Shown here piece after piece: positions 2,505 to 13,975 of a stretch of DNA of 15,047 nucleotides. The notes beneath the pieces are model-generated. The model had not been told where the DNA came from. It searched no databases and worked only from the letters and a program-made list of their open reading frames with translations. Origin of the DNA: Streptosporangiaceae bacterium (lineage in GTDB: Bacteria > Actinomycetota > Actinomycetes > Streptosporangiales > Streptosporangiaceae); the NCBI GenBank assembly GCA_030040475.1, contig JASHTQ010000332.1, positions 1 to 15,047 on the forward strand, in the 5' to 3' direction. The position numbers and the translations under genes were made by a program. Numbering within the stretch: the first letter of the stretch is position 1; every line of letters begins with the position of its first letter.

Positions 2505-3600
2505 TTAATGGAGCGCCGAGTCGGCGATGCGGAAATCGCAGCCAGCCTTTCCGGTCACGCTCAGTAAACTGCAGCTGGTCAGCGCTAACTTAGGTGCGGA
2601 AGTGTCCGCTGATAGGCGAGAACGATGCTGCGGCTCACGCTGGATCCCGCCCTGGAGATCTGACCCGCAATCCCGGATGCCCCGCATGTTAAGCAGTTGC
2701 TGGTTTTGTGGGGCTTCTGCTTTCGGCCGCTTTGGCCTGGGCGTAGGTTCATCCCCCAGTGGTTTGGTGAGCTTCAGTACCGGTAGGTCTGCTTCTCGTG
2801 CCCGGAATGTCTGCCCGGTGTCGAATGTCACCAGGGTGATAGGTTTCCCAGCCAATGGCCCAGCCGCTAGCGCCCTGTCAATGATCTCGTCATCGTTGAC
2901 CGGCAGTCGGACATGCCCGGCGGGTCATACAGGATCTCCATGTCGACGGCGCCGCGGACGCCGAATTCTCCGTCTCGCACCACCCCGCGCCTGTGTTGCT
3001 TGGGGGAGAAGATGCGTTCCAGGAACCCGAGCGTGTAGGAGGCGCGCCATCGTTTAAGCTCCTCACCTTTGTTCTTGATGCCGTCGAGCTCATCGATGAC
3101 GACCATGGGGACCAGAAGGTGGAGCCTCTTGTCCGGGAACGCGGTCAGGGCCGGGGCGATGTCCAGCTTTTCGAGCTTGTCCTCGTGCTCGATATAGACG
3201 CTGGTGTCGAGTACCGCATACAGGTCGTCGGCATCCCACTGCGGATTCGGGCTCCGCAGATCTTTGATGATCTCGTCCAGGGCTTCGGTCCGCAGCCGCA
3301 GCTCCATGTCGATCAGGCCATTCAGCACGCGCTGGGTGCCGGCGTCTGTACTGGTGATACTGCCCATGGCGGTGAGCAGCCGGTCATAGCCGCGGGTGAA
3401 GATGAGTCGGTCAATGTCAGTGGCCTTGATCCGGTTGTTGAGCATGCTGGCTGATCTGGCTGCCATTCCAGGTAGCCGGTAAGCCGTCCGGCCATGCCTG
3501 CGTTCCCCCGGCCCACGGCATTGCCGACTTCGGCACGGATTCTGGTGAGTGTGTCGATGACGTCGCGGCGGTTCGCGCCAGGGTGCAGGGTGACGAGCAT
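2505..3600 (-). pseudogene. PIN-domain ribonuclease-like protein, broken by two frameshifts
   Basis: Three overlapping minus-strand frames together make one recognisable actinobacterial PIN protein. Part 1 (ATG 3600 to about 3460) is MLVTLHPGANRRDVIDTLTR... to TGYLEWQ. Part 2 (about 3457-2915) continues ARSASMLNNRIKATDIDRLI and contains DTSVYIEHEDKLEKLD and VPMVVIDELDGIKNK, which carry the first acidic PIN residues. Part 3 (about 2914 to TAA at 2505) continues HVRLPVNDDEIIDRALAAG, then PITLVTFDTGQTFRAREADL and KLTKPLGDEP, carrying the distal acidic residues. Each junction is repaired by adding one base: near 3455-3460 and in the GGGC/ATG context near 2914-2920. Family similarity stops near KPLGDEP (about 2750); the last ~80 codons look like readthrough. 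Intact, it would be a single-strand RNase-like domain of about 300 aa. Two sequencing errors could also explain the breaks, but decay is simpler in this setting. Confidence 0.82.
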
Positions 3601-4044: not shown

Positions 4045-4284
4045 ATGGTACTGAACAGCAAAGGGCAGGTGACCATCCCGGCGCACCTGCGGGCCAAGTA
4101 CGGCCTGCACGCGGGGGATGAAGTCGAGGTTGTCGAGAGTGGCGGCACCCTCCAGATCGTCCGCACCGAAGGGGCCGAGAGCAGGGGGGAGCGGCTGGTC
4201 CGGCGGCTACGTAACACCGCCACCGGCCGGGACGTAGCCGGCATGAGTACCGATCAGATCATGGCGCTGCTCCGTGGCGAGTGA
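4045..4284 (+). CDS. AbrB/MazE-type (SpoVT-AbrB domain) antitoxin
   Basis: This 79-aa protein starts at ATG 4045 behind GGGAGG with good spacing (gggaggtcgtcATG). Residues 1-42 form a swapped-hairpin SpoVT-AbrB DNA-binding domain: MVLNSKGQVTIPAHLRAKYG, then HAGDEVEVVESGGTLQIVRT. The GQVTIPAHLR core is diagnostic. The C-terminal ~35 residues, including VRRLRNTATGRDVAGMSTDQ, would wrap and inhibit the toxin. The gene overlaps the downstream PIN toxin by 11 nt, the classic antitoxin-first arrangement of translationally coupled type II modules. It probably represses its own promoter through the ACGTGATAG repeats. Assignment as a VapB-like antitoxin rests on the fold plus the PIN-family partner. 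Confidence 0.9.
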   Translation: MVLNSKGQVTIPAHLRAKYGLHAGDEVEVVESGGTLQIVRTEGAESRGERLVRRLRNTATGRDVAGMSTDQIMALLRGE

Positions 4285-4729
4285 GCCCGCGGCGATACGG
4301 CCAGCCACGTTGGTGGATTCCTGTGTCCTGCTCGATGTCATCACAGGTGATGAGCAATGGGCCGACTGGTCGGCTGTGCAGATCGCGGCAGCCGTGGATG
4401 CCGGGCGGGTGGTGATTAACCCCTTGATCTATGCCGAGGTCTCGGTGGGCTACCAGACCGTCGAAGAGCTCGATGAGCTGCTGCCCGCCAGTGATTACGA
4501 ACGTGAGCCGCTGCCCTACCTGGCGGGTTTTGCTGCCGGGAAAGCGTTCGTACGTTACTGGCGTGGCGGCGGTGACAAGCGATCGCCAATGCCGAATTTC
4601 TATATCGGCGCGCATGCCGCCGTAGCGGGCTATCGGCTGCTGACCCGCGATGTACGCCGGTACCGGACGTACTTCCCGACCATCGACATCATCGCGCCAG
4701 CTCAAGCTGAAGGCGAAACAGCCGGCTAA
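4274..4729 (+). CDS. VapC-family PIN-domain toxin, with Asn at a usual catalytic Asp site
   Basis: This 151-aa protein begins at GTG 4274, inside the antitoxin's last codons. The PIN fold is clear: TLVDSCVLLDVITGDEQWAD (Asp15, Asp21), INPLIYAEVSVGY (Glu55), MPNFYIGAHAAVAGYRLLTR and DVRRYRTYFPTIDIIAP (Asp126). PIN toxins cleave RNA at a metal site built from three or four acidic residues. In the relatives I know, the segment before FYIGAHA usually reads LPDF, and that Asp is one of the four. Here it is Asn108 (codon AAT). The site therefore keeps Asp15, Glu55 and Asp126 but lacks one acid, so RNase activity may be reduced or altered. Length and partner are standard for the family. The substrate, usually tRNA or rRNA in VapC toxins, cannot be told from sequence. 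Confidence 0.9.
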   Translation: MASEPAAIRPATLVDSCVLLDVITGDEQWADWSAVQIAAAVDAGRVVINPLIYAEVSVGYQTVEELDELLPASDYEREPLPYLAGFAAGKAFVRYWRGGGDKRSPMPNFYIGAHAAVAGYRLLTRDVRRYRTYFPTIDIIAPAQAEGETAG

Positions 4730-5412: not shown

Positions 5413-5433
5413 TTGCTCCCCGTCTTGCTCCCC
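5413..5433 (-). repeat. Second copy of the integrase-tail motif (GSKTGSK-coding)
   Basis: On the plus strand this 21-bp stretch carries TTGCTCCCC twice, separated by GTC. It matches 5738-5758 at 20 of 21 positions. On the minus strand both copies can read GSKTGSK, a motif I associate with C-terminal tails of some actinobacterial tyrosine integrases. Here an in-frame TGA lies a few codons upstream, so this copy is at most a relic of an older integrase or of an attachment-region repeat. Confidence 0.4.
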
Positions 5434-5540: not shown

Positions 5541-5637
5541 CATGCAAGAGGTCAAAGATCATCTCTAGATTCGAAATACATCTTTGAGCTGCTAAAATGT
5601 GGAGCTTAGGGGATTCGAACCCCTGACCTCTTGCATG
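5541..5637. repeat. 14-bp inverted repeat flanking the attachment scar
   Basis: CATGCAAGAGGTCA at 5541-5554 is the exact inverse complement of 5624-5637, which belongs to the tRNA-Ala fragment. The left arm stops matching the tRNA just where the T-stem would begin. It is therefore a partial, inverted copy of the anticodon-stem and variable-loop segment. It could be an attachment-region remnant of a second event or a recombination by-product. Confidence 0.6.
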
Positions 5638-5649: not shown

Positions 5650-5760
5650 TTACCGTCTCGCAATGTAGCCGGATGTGGCTCTGCCAGCAGCGTTAATCGC
5701 TGTACGTCGCCGGGCATGGCCTGATATCGCCGCTCGCTTGCTCCCCGTTTTGCTCCCCAT
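5650..5760 (-). pseudogene. Tyrosine integrase C-terminal tail remnant
   Basis: A minus-strand frame from ATG 5760 to TAA 5650 reads MGSKTGSKRAAISGHARRRT, then INAAGRATSGYIARR. The tail motif GSKTGSK resembles C-termini of actinobacterial phage-type tyrosine integrases. The stop falls about 10 bp from the tRNA-Ala fragment, the normal place for an int gene that reads towards its own attachment site. No catalytic Arg...HxxR...Tyr region is recognisable upstream (5761-6060), so only the tail survives and the element should be unable to excise by itself. The identification rests on a short motif plus position. Confidence 0.5.
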
Positions 5761-6067
5761 CGACTCCCCGTGCCAGCCATGCTGAGGGCCTTCGGGCAGA
5801 CGCAAGCACTGGCGAATTCCCGTTCGTGTCGCTTTGCCGCACAGCCGCGCGGGACTGGCAGCCCGCCGAGACGCACGCCGCCGAGGGACGGAATGTCGCC
5901 GCGGTTAGGGCCGAGGCTCGATATCGAGGTATCCGTCATAGGGCCGCGATCGTCACGATGAAGTGGCGCAAGAAGCCCTCGGACCCAGCCAGGCCGGAAC
6001 CGATGCGGCGCCACCCGGCCTACGTCCTCACCGCATAAAAGGCCGCCGGCACGCGACCTGCGCCGCC

Positions 6068-6104
6068 TTGGCTATAGCAGCAGATGCATATAGCATCAGA
6101 TGCA
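6068..6104 (+). promoter_or_regulatory. Leaderless promoter with 16-bp tandem repeat before the HigBA-like operon
   Basis: Two tandem 16-bp units, 6073-6088 and 6089-6104, match at 15 of 16 positions (TATAGCA-G/T-CAGATGCA). The second unit ends on the A of the toxin ATG. A promoter fits inside: TTGGCT (6068-6073), a 17-bp spacer, and TAGCAT (6091-6096), followed after 7 nt by ATG 6104. This implies a leaderless mRNA, in keeping with the absence of a ribosome binding site. GATGC-ATATA-GCATC (6083-6097) adds a small palindrome. The repeat is a likely operator for the XRE-type antitoxin encoded two genes on. Confidence 0.6.
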
Positions 6105-6469
6105 TGGCGCTGCTCTATGAGGTGGAGATCGAGCCTGAAGTCCGGTCCTGGCTGGCCAGCCTGTCCGACCGCGACTTCGGCCGGGTCGACTTCCTCGTCG
6201 GCCTGCTCGCCGAGCACGCCCAGGACCTCGGCGAGCCCTATACCCGGCACCTCGGCGGGAAGGTCAGGGAACTGCGGTTCCACCTGCTGCGCCAGCAGAC
6301 CAGGGTCACCTACTGGCTGGCACCGGGCCGGCGGGTGATATTACTGACAGTCTTCCGCAAGACCCGCAGCGCGGAGACCGCCGAGGTCACCCGCGCCCTG
6401 CGCGCCCAGCTGACCTGCGAAACCCAGCACAGCCGGGCCCACGACATATTCGACCGGGAGGTGAACTGA
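6104..6469 (+). CDS. RelE/HigB-type toxin (phage Gp49-like)
   Basis: This 121-aa protein starts at ATG 6104. The frame is open further upstream, but similarity begins here and the ATG sits 7 nt past a -10 box. It reads MALLYEVEIEPEVRSWLASL, DRDFGRVDFLVGLLAEHAQD, then LGEPYTRHLGGKVRELRF, LLRQQTRVTYWLAPGRRVIL and LTVFRKTRSAETAEVTRAL. The order ...EPYTRHLGGKVRELR...RVTYW...ILLTVFRKT is the signature of Gp49-like/HigB toxins of the RelE superfamily. These are ribosome-dependent mRNA interferases with basic residues in the RELR and FRKT segments. The gene is followed one base later by an XRE antitoxin, the toxin-first order typical of HigBA. The C-terminal ~20 residues look disordered. Confidence 0.9.
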   Translation: MALLYEVEIEPEVRSWLASLSDRDFGRVDFLVGLLAEHAQDLGEPYTRHLGGKVRELRFHLLRQQTRVTYWLAPGRRVILLTVFRKTRSAETAEVTRALRAQLTCETQHSRAHDIFDREVN

Positions 6470-6470
6470 C

Positions 6471-6767
6471 ATGACAGACGAGCACACCGCCTATGAAGAA
6501 CTCGCCCGCGAGCGCCGCGGCAGCGAAGAATACCGCCAGGGATACGCCGAGGCCCGCCGCGCCTTCCTGATCGGCCAGGCCGTCCGCGAACGCCGTCTGG
6601 CCCTGGGCCTATCCCAGATAGAACTGGCCACCCGCGCCGACATGACCCAGCCCGCGCTCTCCCGGCTAGAAGCAGGCGGCGTGGTCCCCACCATCCCGCT
6701 GCTGGAACGGATCAGCATGGCCCTCGACGCCGACCTCATCGTGGATATAGCCCCCCATGCCGCCTGA
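6471..6767 (+). CDS. XRE-family HTH antitoxin (HigA-like)
   Basis: This 98-aa protein starts at ATG 6471, one nucleotide after the toxin stop, with GGGAGG about 9 nt upstream inside the toxin's 3' end. Residues 1-30 are acidic and helical (HTAYEELARERRGSEEYRQG). The helix-turn-helix domain spans about 34-90: IGQAVRERRLALGLSQIELA, RADMTQPALSRLEAGGVVPT and PLLERISMALDADLIVDI. It should neutralise the upstream HigB-like toxin and, through the HTH, repress the operon, most plausibly at the 16-bp tandem repeat before the toxin gene. Length, order and spacing are standard for HigA antitoxins of Gp49-type modules. Confidence 0.92.
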   Translation: MTDEHTAYEELARERRGSEEYRQGYAEARRAFLIGQAVRERRLALGLSQIELATRADMTQPALSRLEAGGVVPTIPLLERISMALDADLIVDIAPHAA

Positions 6768-9020: not shown

Positions 9021-11876
9021 ATGTGGTGGTCTGAAACGTCTCGGTGGTATAAGTGTGATCTTCAGGTCGCGACTCCCGCTTGGGATTTCAAGCTTCCCGC
9101 AGGGGCCAACTACGACTTCGACAAGGATTCCGACAGGAAAAGCTTCGCTGACCTGTATATGTCCCGCCTGCGCGCCAACGGAATCGAGGTGATAGCACTT
9201 GCTGATCACCACTCTTCCGCATGGCACGATGTTATGCGAGAGGCGGGTGCCCGAGCGGGCATCATCGTCTTCCCGGGGGTGGAGGTAACTGCCAGCACCG
9301 GCTCAGACGGCGTGCACATAGTCCTGATCGGCGATCTAACGAAGACTGCCCATGATATTGACCTCCTGCTCGCGAAAACCTGCGGTTTCGACGACCATGA
9401 CAGCCCTCCTTTCGACCCCATCACCGGGACCCCTGTCGCATCGCCTCGCTCGATAACATCGATTCTCGACGATCTGCCGGACGGCTGGCTTGCTGTCGCT
9501 CCCCACGCTCTCGGTCAGAACGGGATCGCGTCGGGCAAGACAGTGAACGGCAGCAACCGCTGGAGGGCACTCCACCACGACCGCCTCGTCGCGCTTGACG
9601 TCGGCGACGGGGGGCACGCACCATCGCCTGGCAAGGGCTCGGACGGGGGCTTCAACGCCTCTTTCCGCAACCGGGCCCTGGATGATTTCCCCTGTCTTGA
9701 CCGCATAGCGTTCATCAGTACGTCCGACGCCTACTCCCTTGACGCGCTGGGGTGCAGATTCACCTGGATCCGCATGGCGGAGCCGTCCTTCGAGGGACTG
9801 CGCCAGGCCTTCTTGGATCATGAGGCCAGGATTATCCGCGACTCAGATCCCAATCGGGCAAGCAAGAGCGACCCGAACGAGATTGACCACAGCTGGATTG
9901 AAAGCATCCATCTAGGCGGCGTCATCCAAAACTCGTCCGCGCCGCTAGCCCTCGAATTCAATCCGCGCCTGAACGTGATAATAGGCGGCCGCGGGTCCGG
10001 CAAGTCTACAGTAGTGGCCGCCCTGCGTCAGGTGTACGGCTCGGTGGCAACTCTGCCTGAGTCGCTTCGCGCCGAGGCTGGGGAATTCGTCCAGCAGGTT
10101 TTCGGGCAAGCGGTGATCACAACCCAGCACCGTCTCGCGATCTCGGGCGAACGCCAAGAATCCCGTTGGACCGCCGCCGAGGGGGCGAGCACCGACCGGG
10201 GTGAGACGAGGACCGCGACCTCGTTCCCCGTGCGCATTCTGGCCCAGAAGGAGCTGTATGAACGAGCCAAGCCTGACCCGGCCGATCCTTACCTGGCGTC
10301 GAGGAATCTGCTCCTGCTCATAGACGAGGCGAACGAAGCAGCCGGTGACGGACTACAGCCTTCCTTCGAGGCCGCACGGACAGCAGCTGAATACCGATGC
10401 CAGAACAGTGTCCAAGCGAGACTGCAACTAGAGGCAGCGCTTAACCAGCGGGCCGAGATGAGCGCCCGCAAGGCCGAGCTGCAGCGTCAGCTGGAGGTCC
10501 TCGATGACCCGAGCCGGAAGTCCCGCCGCGAGAACAACGCCCGGCTAATCCAGGAGCGGGCCGATCTCGAGGCTACGGCGGCATCTCTGGGCGGGGTGAT
10601 AGCGAAGATAGAGGAGCAGGTACCGACGCTGCTTCCCGCCGGAGCGGAGGCGCCCGATGCCGTCCGGGCAGGCAGCCTCGCGGGTCACCGGCACGCGCTG
10701 GCCCGCATTGGTGCGGATCTGCGCGAAAAGACCCTGTCGGCGCTGGCCGAGGCCGAGGCGAGACTTTCGGAGGCTAAGGACAATCGGCTGACAGGCGAAT
10801 GGGCCGATCAGGTTAATCGTGCGGTGGAGGACGACGCCGCTTACCAGGCAGAGCTGGCTGATCTCGGCATCAACCCGGAACAGTACAACGCGCTTAGGGA
10901 AGACCTATCCGTGGCCGAGGCGACAATGGCCGAGCTAGAGCGCAAAGAGCGCGAGGTCACGCAGGCACGCGCAGCCGAGCTCTCCGCGTGGGATGAGCTG
11001 TCAAGCGTCTATGCCACACGGCGACGGCGCCGCGGCCATCTCGGAGGGATCGTTGCCAAGAGAAGCGGCTCGCTTCGCTTCGCGATTACGGGCCACGCAG
11101 ACTGGGTGGGGTGGGTCGCTGCCGTCCGGACCCTGCTGAACCTTCGTTCCGATGGTTACGTTGCCGACGTCCAGACGCTCGGCCAGTGGCTGTGGGCCGG
11201 CCAGGCCGAGGAACTAGATTCCCGGGTGGCGCTCTGGCGCGACGCGCTGGTCAACGACAGTCCCCATGCGTATCAGCAACTCGCCACTACAGTCGCCCAG
11301 GCGAGGAAGGGCTGGTGGGACCGGGTCCGCGGACTAGATTTCGCGGTTCGCCTTAGGCTCGCCACCCTGCTCGCCGATGACGTCATCACGATGCGGTTCC
11401 TCAAGGACGGGCAGGACCCGGGCAACGACGAGAGCTGGCAGCAGGTGATACACGGCTCTCCCGGCCAGCGCAGCGCCGCAATGCTCAGCTTTGTCCTGCA
11501 TCACGGAACCGAGCCCCTCGTCCTCGACCAGCCCGAGGACGATCTGGACACGGCCCTGATCTCTCAGCTGGTGGTCCACGAACTCAGAAAGAGCCGCTGG
11601 CAACGTCAGGTGATCGTGGTAACGCACAACGCGAATATCCCTGTTCTCGGCGATGCCGAGCGCATCATAACGCTGGAAAACCGAGGCGGCAGCCTGCGGA
11701 TAAAGAACACGAGCGGCCCGCATGTGGGCCCCCTTGAGGTCGCTGAGGTGCGGCGCGAGATCCAAGACGTCATGGAAGGCGGAGTCCCCGCGTTCATAAC
11801 CCGGGAACGACGCTACGACAATGAACTCAGCACGTACCGACAAGCGCTATCGCTATCGTCAAGCAGGAGCAGATAA
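9021..11876 (+). CDS. TrlF-like protein: PHP-type N-domain fused to SMC/Rad50-like ATPase
   Basis: This is a 951-aa protein. Residues ~8-275 resemble a PHP phosphoesterase: YKCDLQVATPAWDF (11-23), VIALADHHSSAWHD (57-70), IIVFPGVEVTASTGSDGVHI (81-100), VAPHALG (159-165) and FISTSDAYSLDALGCRFTWI (231-250) with PSFEGLRQAF. Residues ~295-340 hold the ATPase start with Walker A, IGGRGSGKST (321-330). Residues ~450-665 are coiled-coil. The ATPase half closes with HGSPGQRSAAMLSF (811-824, signature), EPLVLDQPEDDLDT (831-844, Walker B) and VIVVTHNANIPVLGDAERII (864-883, His switch). The layout matches large PHP-ATPase proteins of the TrlF type, thought to act on nucleic acids and found in accessory, defence-like loci. 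The PHP metal motifs are atypical: DLQVAT instead of DxHxH, and SDAY instead of SDAH. ATG 9021 is the only in-frame start after TGA 8940. A DUF6308 gene follows. Confidence 0.85.
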   Translation: MWWSETSRWYKCDLQVATPAWDFKLPAGANYDFDKDSDRKSFADLYMSRLRANGIEVIALADHHSSAWHDVMREAGARAGIIVFPGVEVTASTGSDGVHIVLIGDLTKTAHDIDLLLAKTCGFDDHDSPPFDPITGTPVASPRSITSILDDLPDGWLAVAPHALGQNGIASGKTVNGSNRWRALHHDRLVALDVGDGGHAPSPGKGSDGGFNASFRNRALDDFPCLDRIAFISTSDAYSLDALGCRFTWIRMAEPSFEGLRQAFLDHEARIIRDSDPNRASKSDPNEIDHSWIESIHLGGVIQNSSAPLALEFNPRLNVIIGGRGSGKSTVVAALRQVYGSVATLPESLRAEAGEFVQQVFGQAVITTQHRLAISGERQESRWTAAEGASTDRGETRTATSFPVRILAQKELYERAKPDPADPYLASRNLLLLIDEANEAAGDGLQPSFEAARTAAEYRCQNSVQARLQLEAALNQRAEMSARKAELQRQLEVLDDPSRKSRRENNARLIQERADLEATAASLGGVIAKIEEQVPTLLPAGAEAPDAVRAGSLAGHRHALARIGADLREKTLSALAEAEARLSEAKDNRLTGEWADQVNRAVEDDAAYQAELADLGINPEQYNALREDLSVAEATMAELERKEREVTQARAAELSAWDELSSVYATRRRRRGHLGGIVAKRSGSLRFAITGHADWVGWVAAVRTLLNLRSDGYVADVQTLGQWLWAGQAEELDSRVALWRDALVNDSPHAYQQLATTVAQARKGWWDRVRGLDFAVRLRLATLLADDVITMRFLKDGQDPGNDESWQQVIHGSPGQRSAAMLSFVLHHGTEPLVLDQPEDDLDTALISQLVVHELRKSRWQRQVIVVTHNANIPVLGDAERIITLENRGGSLRIKNTSGPHVGPLEVAEVRREIQDVMEGGVPAFITRERRYDNELSTYRQALSLSSSRSR

Positions 11877-11912
11877 CGGATATGCTCCGCGTGCCTTCTG
11901 CGGAGGTGGGTT

Positions 11913-12002
11913 ATGTTCGTGGATCTCTGTGTGGATCACGTCGGCGGGAGAACTGCGGAGGTGGTTGCAGGTGCCAATGTTCGGCGGGCTTTGGGTTCCT
12001 GA
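11913..12002 (+). CDS. Possible small ORF between the ATPase and DUF6308 genes
   Basis: ATG 11913 follows a near-perfect ribosome binding site (GGAGGTGGGTT, 6 nt spacing) and opens a 29-codon frame, MFVDLCVDHVGGRTAEVVAG ..., that ends at TGA 12000-12002. This is inside the start of the DUF6308-like gene in another frame. It could be a small coupled peptide. It could also be the original N-terminus of the DUF6308 gene before a frameshift. The ribosome binding site is better than that of any neighbour; no homology supports the peptide. Confidence 0.3.
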   Translation: MFVDLCVDHVGGRTAEVVAGANVRRALGS

Positions 12003-12684
12003 TGAGCTCCTAGATGAAACATACGCGCGAGGCCTGCTTCGCGGTTATTTCCGTCGCGACGGCGGCGGGTGGGTGTACTCCGGGGCGATGTTCGACACCT
12101 ACCCGGCCGAACCGGCGACGGCCGAGGCTAGCCAGCCTGCCGCCGCGAACGTGATCACCGATAGCGACATAGTCGCCCTGAGCATGCTCGGGATCCGAGC
12201 CACCGGGTACGAGGCGCTCATTATTACCAGAGACAAGAGCCGGGAGATCGAGGCGCTGCTCGCCGAGATCGGAGCCGACGCTCTCATTGACGAAGACCAG
12301 AGCGCCGGACTGCTCTCCCCTGATGGCCCGGCGTGGAAGCTGTGGGAACTGCTCCGGGACGTCAAGGACCGGACGAAGGATGCGCGCTTCGGCGCTGTCG
12401 CGGCGGGCAAGATGCTCGCGCGCAAGCGCCCGGGCTTGGTCCCCATTGAGGACAGCCGGATCGCCGCGGTGTTCAGGCGGCCGCTGCCGGACCGGGATGA
12501 ACGCTGGTGGGATGACGTGCGCTCCGCATCCCTCGACCGGCGCAAGACGGCAGGCGGCACCACCTTGTGGGGATACCTCGACCGCATCAAAGGTGAAGAA
12601 AACCTCGCCCACCTGCCCACCTTGCGCGCGCTCGACATCATCGGCTGGATGCACGCGCGCAGCAGTCCGCGCATCAACGCATAG
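11971..12684 (+). CDS. DUF6308-like protein, partner of the TrlF-like ATPase
   Basis: The gene encodes 237 aa from GTG 11971. The frame is open back to ATG 11821, inside the ATPase gene, but the best ribosome binding site in front of a start in this frame is GGAGG about 9 nt before GTG 11971 (ATG 11977 is also possible). Family-like blocks are: DETYARGLLRGYFRRDGGGW, YSGAMFDTY, DSDIVALSMLGIRATGYEAL, EIEALLAEIGADALI, WKLWELLRDVKD, FGAVAAGKMLARKRPGLVPI (a helix-hairpin-helix-like AGKxLARKRPxLxPxxD segment), WWDDVRSASL and LPTLRALDIIGWMHA at the end. DUF6308 has no established activity known to me. The AGK-LARKRP segment resembles DNA-glycosylase/HhH folds, hinting at nucleic-acid contact. Same strand and a short gap after the ATPase stop suggest one transcript and a joint role. 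Confidence 0.75.
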   Translation: MPMFGGLWVPDELLDETYARGLLRGYFRRDGGGWVYSGAMFDTYPAEPATAEASQPAAANVITDSDIVALSMLGIRATGYEALIITRDKSREIEALLAEIGADALIDEDQSAGLLSPDGPAWKLWELLRDVKDRTKDARFGAVAAGKMLARKRPGLVPIEDSRIAAVFRRPLPDRDERWWDDVRSASLDRRKTAGGTTLWGYLDRIKGEENLAHLPTLRALDIIGWMHARSSPRINA

Positions 12685-13530: not shown

Positions 13531-13975
13531 TGTCAAGTTGTGTGTGTAGGTTCGGGGTGGCTGCAATCCTTTCGTTATTTATTGTTGTGGTGGATATTGC
13601 CGGGCTATACGGGTACGCGGCCGGGGAACTGGACGGCGAGTGCGTTAAGCGCTGCCTTCCATCCGAGTGTGCCCGTTCCGCGTTCTCCTCTCTCGAGGAC
13701 CAGGCCGTCGCCGTCGATATGACGGCCGGTGATATTCCGGATCCCGAGGTAAAGCAGCTTGACTGCGGCGTCGTCGTCGGGGAAGTGGCCGCGGTTCTTC
13801 GTGATTTTCCGCAGCTGGAAGTTCATGGACTCGATGGCGTTAGTGGTATAGATCACCTTTCGTATGGCGGCGTCGAACTTGAGAAACGGGACGAACTCGT
13901 CCCAGGCCCGTTCCCAGGCCGCTATCATCCCGGGAGCCTTCTTCCCGAACTCGCGGCGCATGTTCTCCACAGGGA
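13530..13975 (-). mobile_element. IS256-family (mutator) element, truncated
   Basis: The left boundary is at GCTTGTCAAGTTGTGTGTGT (starting about 13529), which looks like the terminal repeat of actinobacterial mutator elements and is exactly where the IS110 transposase frame breaks. The element contains the transposase C-terminus (13605-13975) and ends abruptly near 13970, where the ISAs1-side DNA begins. Its 5' half and second terminal repeat are absent. Confidence 0.65.
13605..13975 (-). pseudogene. IS256-family transposase, C-terminal fragment
   Basis: The minus-strand frame ending at TAG 13605 reads MRREFGKKAPGMIAAWERAW, DEFVPFLKFDAAIRKVIYTT, NAIESMNFQLRKITKNRGHF, PDDDAAVKLLYLGIRNITGR, GTLGWKAALNALAVQFPGR. 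The blocks WERAWDEFVPFL, VIYTTNAIESMN, LRKITKNRGHFP and GWKAALNALA are diagnostic of IS256/mutator transposases; the Glu of TNAIES is the last acid of the DDE triad. About two thirds of the protein, including both catalytic Asp residues, is missing upstream of about 13975. The same frame stays open further right, but there it only runs antisense to the ISAs1 transposase. Confidence 0.88.

What the first reader, a model, noticed from the sequence alone, without database searches (positions are those of the whole stretch)
9021..12684. TrlF-like PHP/SMC-ATPase paired with a DUF6308-like gene: candidate two-gene defence-like system
A 951-aa protein joins a PHP-type domain, coiled-coil and a Rad50/SMC-like ATPase with all key motifs visible. 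A DUF6308-like gene with an HhH-like AGKxLARKRP segment follows on the same strand after about 95 bp. Neighbours are toxin-antitoxin modules, IS relics and a tRNA attachment scar, the usual setting of defence islands. I know of no description of this pairing; the joint function is inference.
Basis: partly seen in the sequence, partly recalled or inferred. Interest (0 to 1): 0.8.

Follow-up and report, generated by a model that had tools for sequence, protein, structure and literature searches.

The report
Variant TrlF defence protein, unconserved neighbour
The window holds a large bacterial protein from the family of a known anti-phage enzyme, but its branch lacks part of that enzyme's usual cutting site, and the gene beside it looks like a chance neighbour with a DNA-repair-enzyme-like shape rather than a fixed partner.

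Summary
ORF 9021-11876 (951 aa) is a TrlF family member (417.6 bits, cut-off 350). A DUF6308 gene follows 94 bp later, best start GTG 11971 (119.5 bits, cut-off 27.3).

The pairing is not supported. Seven full-length TrlF relatives (46-54% identical) turned up in order and class samples of genomes. None has DUF6308 beside it; one of the seven genomes carries DUF6308 at all, 1.76 Mb away. The one DUF6308 relative that the genome scan opened (56%) has no TrlF in its genome.

Likely: a Ppl-like single-gene defence variant plus an independent accessory gene.

The parts
9021..11876 (+). TrlF family protein, 951 aa: PHP-like domain (about 1-285), SMC/Rad50-like ATPase split by a long coiled coil
   Evidence: NF045780 417.6 bits over cut-off 350; AF2 pLDDT 84.2; SMC/Rad50/RecN head matches
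9051..9077 (+). degenerate PHP motif I (residues 11-19, K-C-D-L-Q-V-A-T-P): His-x-His replaced by Gln15-x-Ala17
   Evidence: Q in 27 of 27 rows with the column filled, 10 gapped; 97 of 97 read by pattern among 120 homologues are Q-x-A (93) or Q-x-G (4), 23 not read; H-x-H in seven of seven plasmid TrlF/Ppl rows
9723..9734 (+). PHP last motif (S235-D-A-Y238): His replaced by Tyr
   Evidence: Y in 37 of 37 rows; H in E. coli Ppl and in four of the other six plasmid rows, Lys in two
9984..10010 (+). Walker A (residues 322-330)
11454..11549 (+). ABC signature-like segment (812-822) and Walker B (832-843)
11877..11970 (+). 94-bp gap between the two genes: no promoter match, one weak terminator-like match at 11892-11908 (5 such matches in the region scanned, 3.0 expected); a 29-codon ORF with a Shine-Dalgarno-like site upstream runs 11913-12002
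   Evidence: inconclusive for co-transcription
11971..12684 (+). DUF6308 gene, 237 aa, HhH-GPD-like predicted fold
12391..12453 (+). conserved G141...D161 segment, at the position of the HhH plus catalytic-Asp loop of HhH-GPD proteins
   Evidence: G141, K147, K152, R153, P154, L156, P158, D161 invariant in 49 rows; profile alignment of distant DUF6308 rows places it on LPGVG...VDT

Best explanation
Two independent accessory genes lie side by side in a mobile, defence-type region of an apparent actinobacterium. The first is a single-gene TrlF protein of a distinct clade of the Ppl/TrlF family. By analogy with Ppl, its SMC/Rad50-like ATPase senses DNA ends or nucleotide state and acts against foreign DNA (inferred). 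Its PHP domain keeps part of the metal site but has lost the His-x-His pair and the last His across the clade, so Ppl's metal-dependent 3'-5' exonuclease chemistry is probably lost or changed (inferred from shown substitutions). The second, DUF6308, is a divergent HhH-GPD-like protein that probably binds DNA and may be a glycosylase; it has no fixed partner (shown for the sample examined).
For: TrlF membership. The clade is monophyletic with support 0.98 among H-x-H TrlF/Ppl proteins in a FastTree of 36 clade rows and 7 others. Motif substitutions. Relatives stand without DUF6308 (0 of 7; no match in 14 fetched TrlF/Ppl loci). Other defence genes lie near 2 of the 7 (a CBASS-type cyclase and HNH protein in L031, a DrmMI-type methylase in L032; only chosen neighbours were scanned), and R-M genes beside three of the plasmid copies. 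DUF6308 neighbours vary; in Actinocrinis they are a SUKH protein, a McrBC-domain protein and 86 exact repeats mostly 61 bp apart, CRISPR-like. Ppl function from PMC12904381, section 5. DUF6308 fold.
Confidence: 0.6

Rival explanations
1. A young two-gene operon of the immediate clade: DUF6308, as a base-excising or DNA-marking HhH-GPD-like protein, makes lesions or ends that the TrlF ATPase recognises.
For: Same strand, 94-bp gap, no promoter match between; HhH-GPD-like fold; known defence glycosylases excise modified phage bases (PMC11078745, passages; PMC13160076, passages).
Against: 0 of 7 TrlF relatives adjacent; a weak terminator-like match lies in the gap; no contig length shared between 120 TrlF and 64 DUF6308 homologues, though each length is only that listed for a cluster.
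Confidence: 0.15
2. TrlF here is an active Ppl-like exonuclease that uses a reduced metal site, so the substitutions are tuning and not loss.
For: E88, H99, H162 and D236 are invariant and D62, H63 nearly so in 37 rows; named members range from actinobacteria to Polaromonas and Paraburkholderia, so the clade is under selection.
Against: The H-x-H pair is lost without exception where read, and the last His in 37 of 37 rows.
Confidence: 0.2
3. DUF6308 is not a DNA enzyme at all but a small helical regulator or immunity-type protein.
For: Weak Z and no PF00730 match; one relative sits behind a SUKH immunity-type gene.
Against: The 31 top VIA rows are HhH-GPD proteins, and the distant branch aligns the HhH and Asp loop with scores above reversed controls for AlkA and MutY.
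Confidence: 0.3

Closest known systems
TrlF family AAA-like ATPase (NCBIfam NF045780)
   Same: Full-length match over the cut-off, same domain order, ATPase motifs
   Different: PHP motif I and last His substituted across this clade; 417.6 bits, while six plasmid rows, one of them Ppl, score 477-641 on the same model
Ppl (NCBIfam NF042955), E. coli single-gene anti-phage 3'-5' exonuclease
   Same: PHP plus SMC-like ATPase architecture; sister lineage in the tree
   Different: 23% identity in the alignment; 243.6 bits against a cut-off of 1000; lacks Ppl's H-N-H motif and last His
DUF6308 (PF19827)
   Same: Clear family member
   Different: Belongs to a subclade with organism names on only 4 of 66 relatives; 119.5 bits against the Pfam model, where 22 of 51 places score over 200
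HhH-GPD DNA glycosylases (OGG, EndoIII, MutY, AlkA)
   Same: Predicted fold, an HhH-like segment and an invariant Asp at the place of the catalytic Asp
   Different: No PF00730 match, weak Z, activity unknown
Brig1/Brig3 defence glycosylases
   Same: Would be a DNA glycosylase-like protein among defence genes
   Different: Brig1 and Brig3 belong to the uracil DNA glycosylase superfamily by the papers' own words, a different family

Membership tests
TrlF (NF045780) | score of at least 350 bits | tested here: met
   417.6 bits
TrlF (NF045780) | SMC/Rad50-like ATPase with Walker A, signature, Walker B, H-loop | tested here: met
PHP metal-dependent hydrolase | motif I H-x-H | tested here: not met
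   Q15-x-A17
PHP metal-dependent hydrolase | remaining acidic and His ligands, and last S-D-x-H | tested here: not met
   D62/H63, E88, H99, H162, D236 kept; last His is Y238. Ligand roles are recalled, from no call
Ppl (NF042955) | score of at least 1000 bits | tested here: not met
   243.6 bits
Ppl | 3'-5' ssDNA exonuclease held back by NTPs | not testable with these tools
   function read in PMC12904381, section 5
DUF6308 (PF19827) | score of at least 27.3 bits | tested here: met
   119.5 bits
HhH-GPD (PF00730) | Pfam match | tested here: not met
   0 of 49 members up to E 10
HhH-GPD | fold | tested here: inconclusive
HhH-GPD | HhH plus catalytic-Asp loop | tested here: inconclusive
   invariant D161; distant branch (19 rows) probability 46.9 AlkA, 20.8 MutY, 10.0 all, 6.2 Nth+MutY, 1.6 Nth; reversed controls at most 3.1; all 31 rows together at most 4.3; own clade at most 0.6
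two-gene TrlF-DUF6308 system | adjacency kept in diverse genomes | tested here: not met
   0 of 7 at 46-54% identity; not testable at 55-95%

The most novel reading that the evidence does not exclude
A TrlF clade has given up Ppl-type PHP catalysis and works as a DNA-end or nucleotide sensor, and in this lineage it has recruited an HhH-GPD-type glycosylase (DUF6308) as its effector, making an excision-based defence unlike the uracil-glycosylase-type Brig systems.
Probability: 0.07. Interest if true: 0.8.

Novelty: new variant of a known kind. Interest (0 to 1): 0.42.

Why it matters
If the Q-x-A clade lacks PHP catalysis, reading every TrlF as a Ppl-like nuclease is wrong, and one can ask directly what the ATPase does without it. 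An HhH-GPD-like identity would give DUF6308, a family of unknown function that no held paper names (search), a first testable function.

Tried and rejected
Two-gene system: rejected for the sample tested (0 of 7). Relatives in viral contigs: none for TrlF or DUF6308 by pattern scans. A conserved DUF6308 partner: neighbours vary by eye, in the annotations of five plasmids and in mechanical ORF lists reaching 1.5 kb out at 15 loci. R. fascians and Cryobacterium share a similar upstream small gene, and the two Rhodococcus linear plasmids share another, but neither is general. H23 of the six plasmid DUF6308 records was not opened. Rfam: only a sub-threshold tmRNA match, 16.2 against 47 bits, at the tRNA scar. 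RNA fold of the gap: z -2.15, 7 of 200 shuffles as good, not pursued.

Limits of the survey. In some searches only two candidates per genome were scored, and at most eight, so oddly ranked copies could be missed. Searches are even draws from larger groups. rang in 391 of 391 genomes at E 0.001 and in 14 of 14 controls, because of ordinary PHP and SMC proteins; I counted only the 2 over the cut-off. A TrlF fragment with a stop in G378 (170 bits, C84) lies on another contig than that genome's DUF6308 matches (C69, C406). The tblastn check used the window's own proteins and would miss distant DUF6308; with the Pfam model is the stronger test. Neighbours of the seven TrlF loci: I scanned only chosen ORFs (10, 6); of those, the ones in L033-L036 showed no defence family and L037 an NB-ARC/TPR protein without a PADLOC match.

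Pattern reading of the last PHP motif gave Y in 110 of 120 and something else or nothing in 10, which I did not check by hand; the aligned count (37 of 37) is the one I use.

Failed computations. In one search the broad DUF6308 comparisons failed and printed a stale result; a wrong option gave meaningless rows, some with 1 aligned column and high probability. Both were dropped and redone, with 17 HhH-GPD sequences out of 26 places found. Scores there: distant branch 20.7 to 34.0, all reversed controls 10.1 to 22.9, so Nth (20.7) lies inside the controls.

Literature, by listing: TrlF with ATPase gave 2 unrelated-looking papers; 'TrlF family' none; DUF6308 none; searches gave no TrlF study.
Full report
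What is there. The window is 15,047 bases at 65.5% GC. ORF 9021-11876 encodes 951 aa. It passes the NCBIfam TrlF model NF045780 at 417.6 bits against a cut-off of 350, and falls far short of the Ppl model NF042955 (243.6 against 1000). PADLOC's best match is Ppl at 184 bits. A protein search gave 793 homologues at E 0.001, of which 120 were listed, the best 95% identical over the whole length. AlphaFold2 on 37 aligned sequences gives mean pLDDT 84.2 and pTM 0.70, with long helices between the two halves of the ATPase, and Foldseek's best PDB matches are SMC, MukB, Rad50, RecN and RecF heads.

The second gene. The ORF finder reports 11821-12684, but most homologues begin at or near M-x-x-F-G, which here is GTG 11971 with GGAGGT 8 nt upstream. 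So the gap is 94 bp. The protein passes PF19827 (119.5 bits against 27.3). A search found 66 relatives, only 4 with an organism name.

Is the pair conserved? I sampled genomes through the Actinocrinis genome G001, which holds the one DUF6308 relative that the genome scan opened (56% identical). In its order, 40 of 391 genomes have DUF6308 over the cut-off and 2 of 391 have TrlF over the cut-off (G020, G179); neither of those two has DUF6308. In its class, 2 of 394 genomes have a TrlF match at E 1e-50 (G516, G541). In the order of G541, 4 of 345 do (G541, G757, G807, G966), and 6 of 345 have a weak match to the window's DUF6308 subclade profile (best 62.8 bits), none of them one of those four. 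In the family of G001, 14 genomes, the DUF6308 profile finds only G001 and TrlF only G020. The seven distinct full-length TrlF loci are 46-54% identical to the window's (G179, 49%). I fetched about 19 kb around each. DUF6308 is present in 1 of those 7 genomes, G516, 1.76 Mb from TrlF. So adjacency is 0 of 7. In the other direction, none of 22 fetched DUF6308 loci, standing for 21 genes, holds a TrlF match; most reach only 1.5 kb out. G001 has no TrlF at E 1e-50 in the whole genome.

What the survey cannot reach. As an indirect check I compared the listed contig lengths of the 120 TrlF and of 64 DUF6308 homologues (two of 66 had none). No length is shared. Two genes on one listed contig should share it, but each cluster lists few contigs, so this is weak evidence.

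Context of the relatives. Among the seven TrlF loci, a CBASS-type cyclase and an HNH protein lie within 4 kb in L031, and a DrmMI-type methylase and a transposase in L032. I scanned only chosen neighbours; those in L033-L036 showed no defence family and L037 has an NB-ARC/TPR protein. On plasmids TrlF lies beside a helicase and N-6 methylase, a type II R-M pair, inside a type I R-M cluster, and near toxin-antitoxin or Abi genes. The Pseudomonas plasmid copy has no obvious defence neighbour. DUF6308's Actinocrinis relative follows a SUKH-1 gene, with a McrBC-domain protein and 86 exact repeats mostly 61 bp apart, CRISPR-like, further upstream. On five of six plasmids opened, its neighbours differ. 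In mechanical ORF lists at 15 loci I saw no shared partner.

A clade with a changed PHP site. In alignment A2 (37 rows) the ATPase motifs are nearly invariant, but PHP motif I, His-x-His in active enzymes (recalled), is Gln15-x-Ala17 (Q in 27 of 27 filled rows; A in 28 and G in 1 of 29 filled rows), and the last motif S-D-x-His is S-D-x-Tyr in 37 of 37. Among the 120 homologues, 97 of 97 read by pattern are Q-x-A (93) or Q-x-G (4). Of the 23 not read, five show Q by eye in the printed starts; the other 18 begin at or downstream of the motif. G516's TrlF, also in the clade, reads Q-x-S. Outside the clade, E. coli Ppl reads H-N-H and D-A-H; the six plasmid TrlF rows read H-T-H (2), H-N-H, H-L-H (2) and H-V-H. 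Four of those six keep the last His, the two H-L-H rows have Lys, and the H-V-H row lacks the motif II His and the P-H motif, so PHP sites vary elsewhere too. A FastTree of 36 clade rows and 7 others makes the clade monophyletic, support 0.98, sister to Ppl and its nearest TrlFs. E88, H99, H162 and D236 are invariant and D62, H63 nearly so. Which metal each binds is recalled from PHP enzymes, not tested. The uniform substitution points to one ancestral change under selection, not to decay.

How it may work. A review, of which I read passages and section 5, says that E. [quoted passage not shown] By analogy the window's TrlF should sense DNA ends or nucleotide state through its ATPase. Whether its PHP domain still cuts is open, and I think Ppl's chemistry is probably lost or altered.

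Verdict. The parts are as described, the pairing is not supported at the distances tested, and the finding worth keeping is the PHP-substituted TrlF clade, with an HhH-GPD-like lead for DUF6308.

Noticed in passing
window 5599-5630 (minus), flanked by 5413-5433 and 5738-5758: tRNA 3'-end remnant flanked on both sides by a 21-nt repeat, 95% identical, as if two integrated elements had met there; the integrase-end reading is recalled, not tested.
   Followed up: partly
L052, L053; G152, G234: DUF6308 lies about 2 kb from the end of linear plasmids pRHL2 and pRoPD630_1, near both ends of the 8.27-Mb contig in G152 and 5 kb from a contig start in G234. No background rate was computed.
   Followed up: no
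window 4045-4729 and 6041-6767: A MazE/AbrB-type antitoxin with a PIN protein, and a Gp49 plus HTH pair, both same-strand toxin-antitoxin-like modules.
   Followed up: partly
window 13734-13973 (minus): C-terminal remnant of a Mutator-type transposase (PF00872 positions 292-371 of 379).
   Followed up: no
window 2867-3466 (minus): PIN_4-domain ORF that looks incomplete (PF13638 positions 2-45 of 132).
   Followed up: no
window 11913-12002: A 29-codon ORF with a Shine-Dalgarno-like site upstream overlaps the DUF6308 start, and a CTGCGGAGGTGG element occurs twice in the 94-bp gap; possible translational control, untested.
   Followed up: no
L001 7-5222: In Actinocrinis, 86 exact copies of a 20-mer mostly 61 bp apart, CRISPR-like, lie upstream of a McrBC-domain gene and the DUF6308 relative.
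   Followed up: partly
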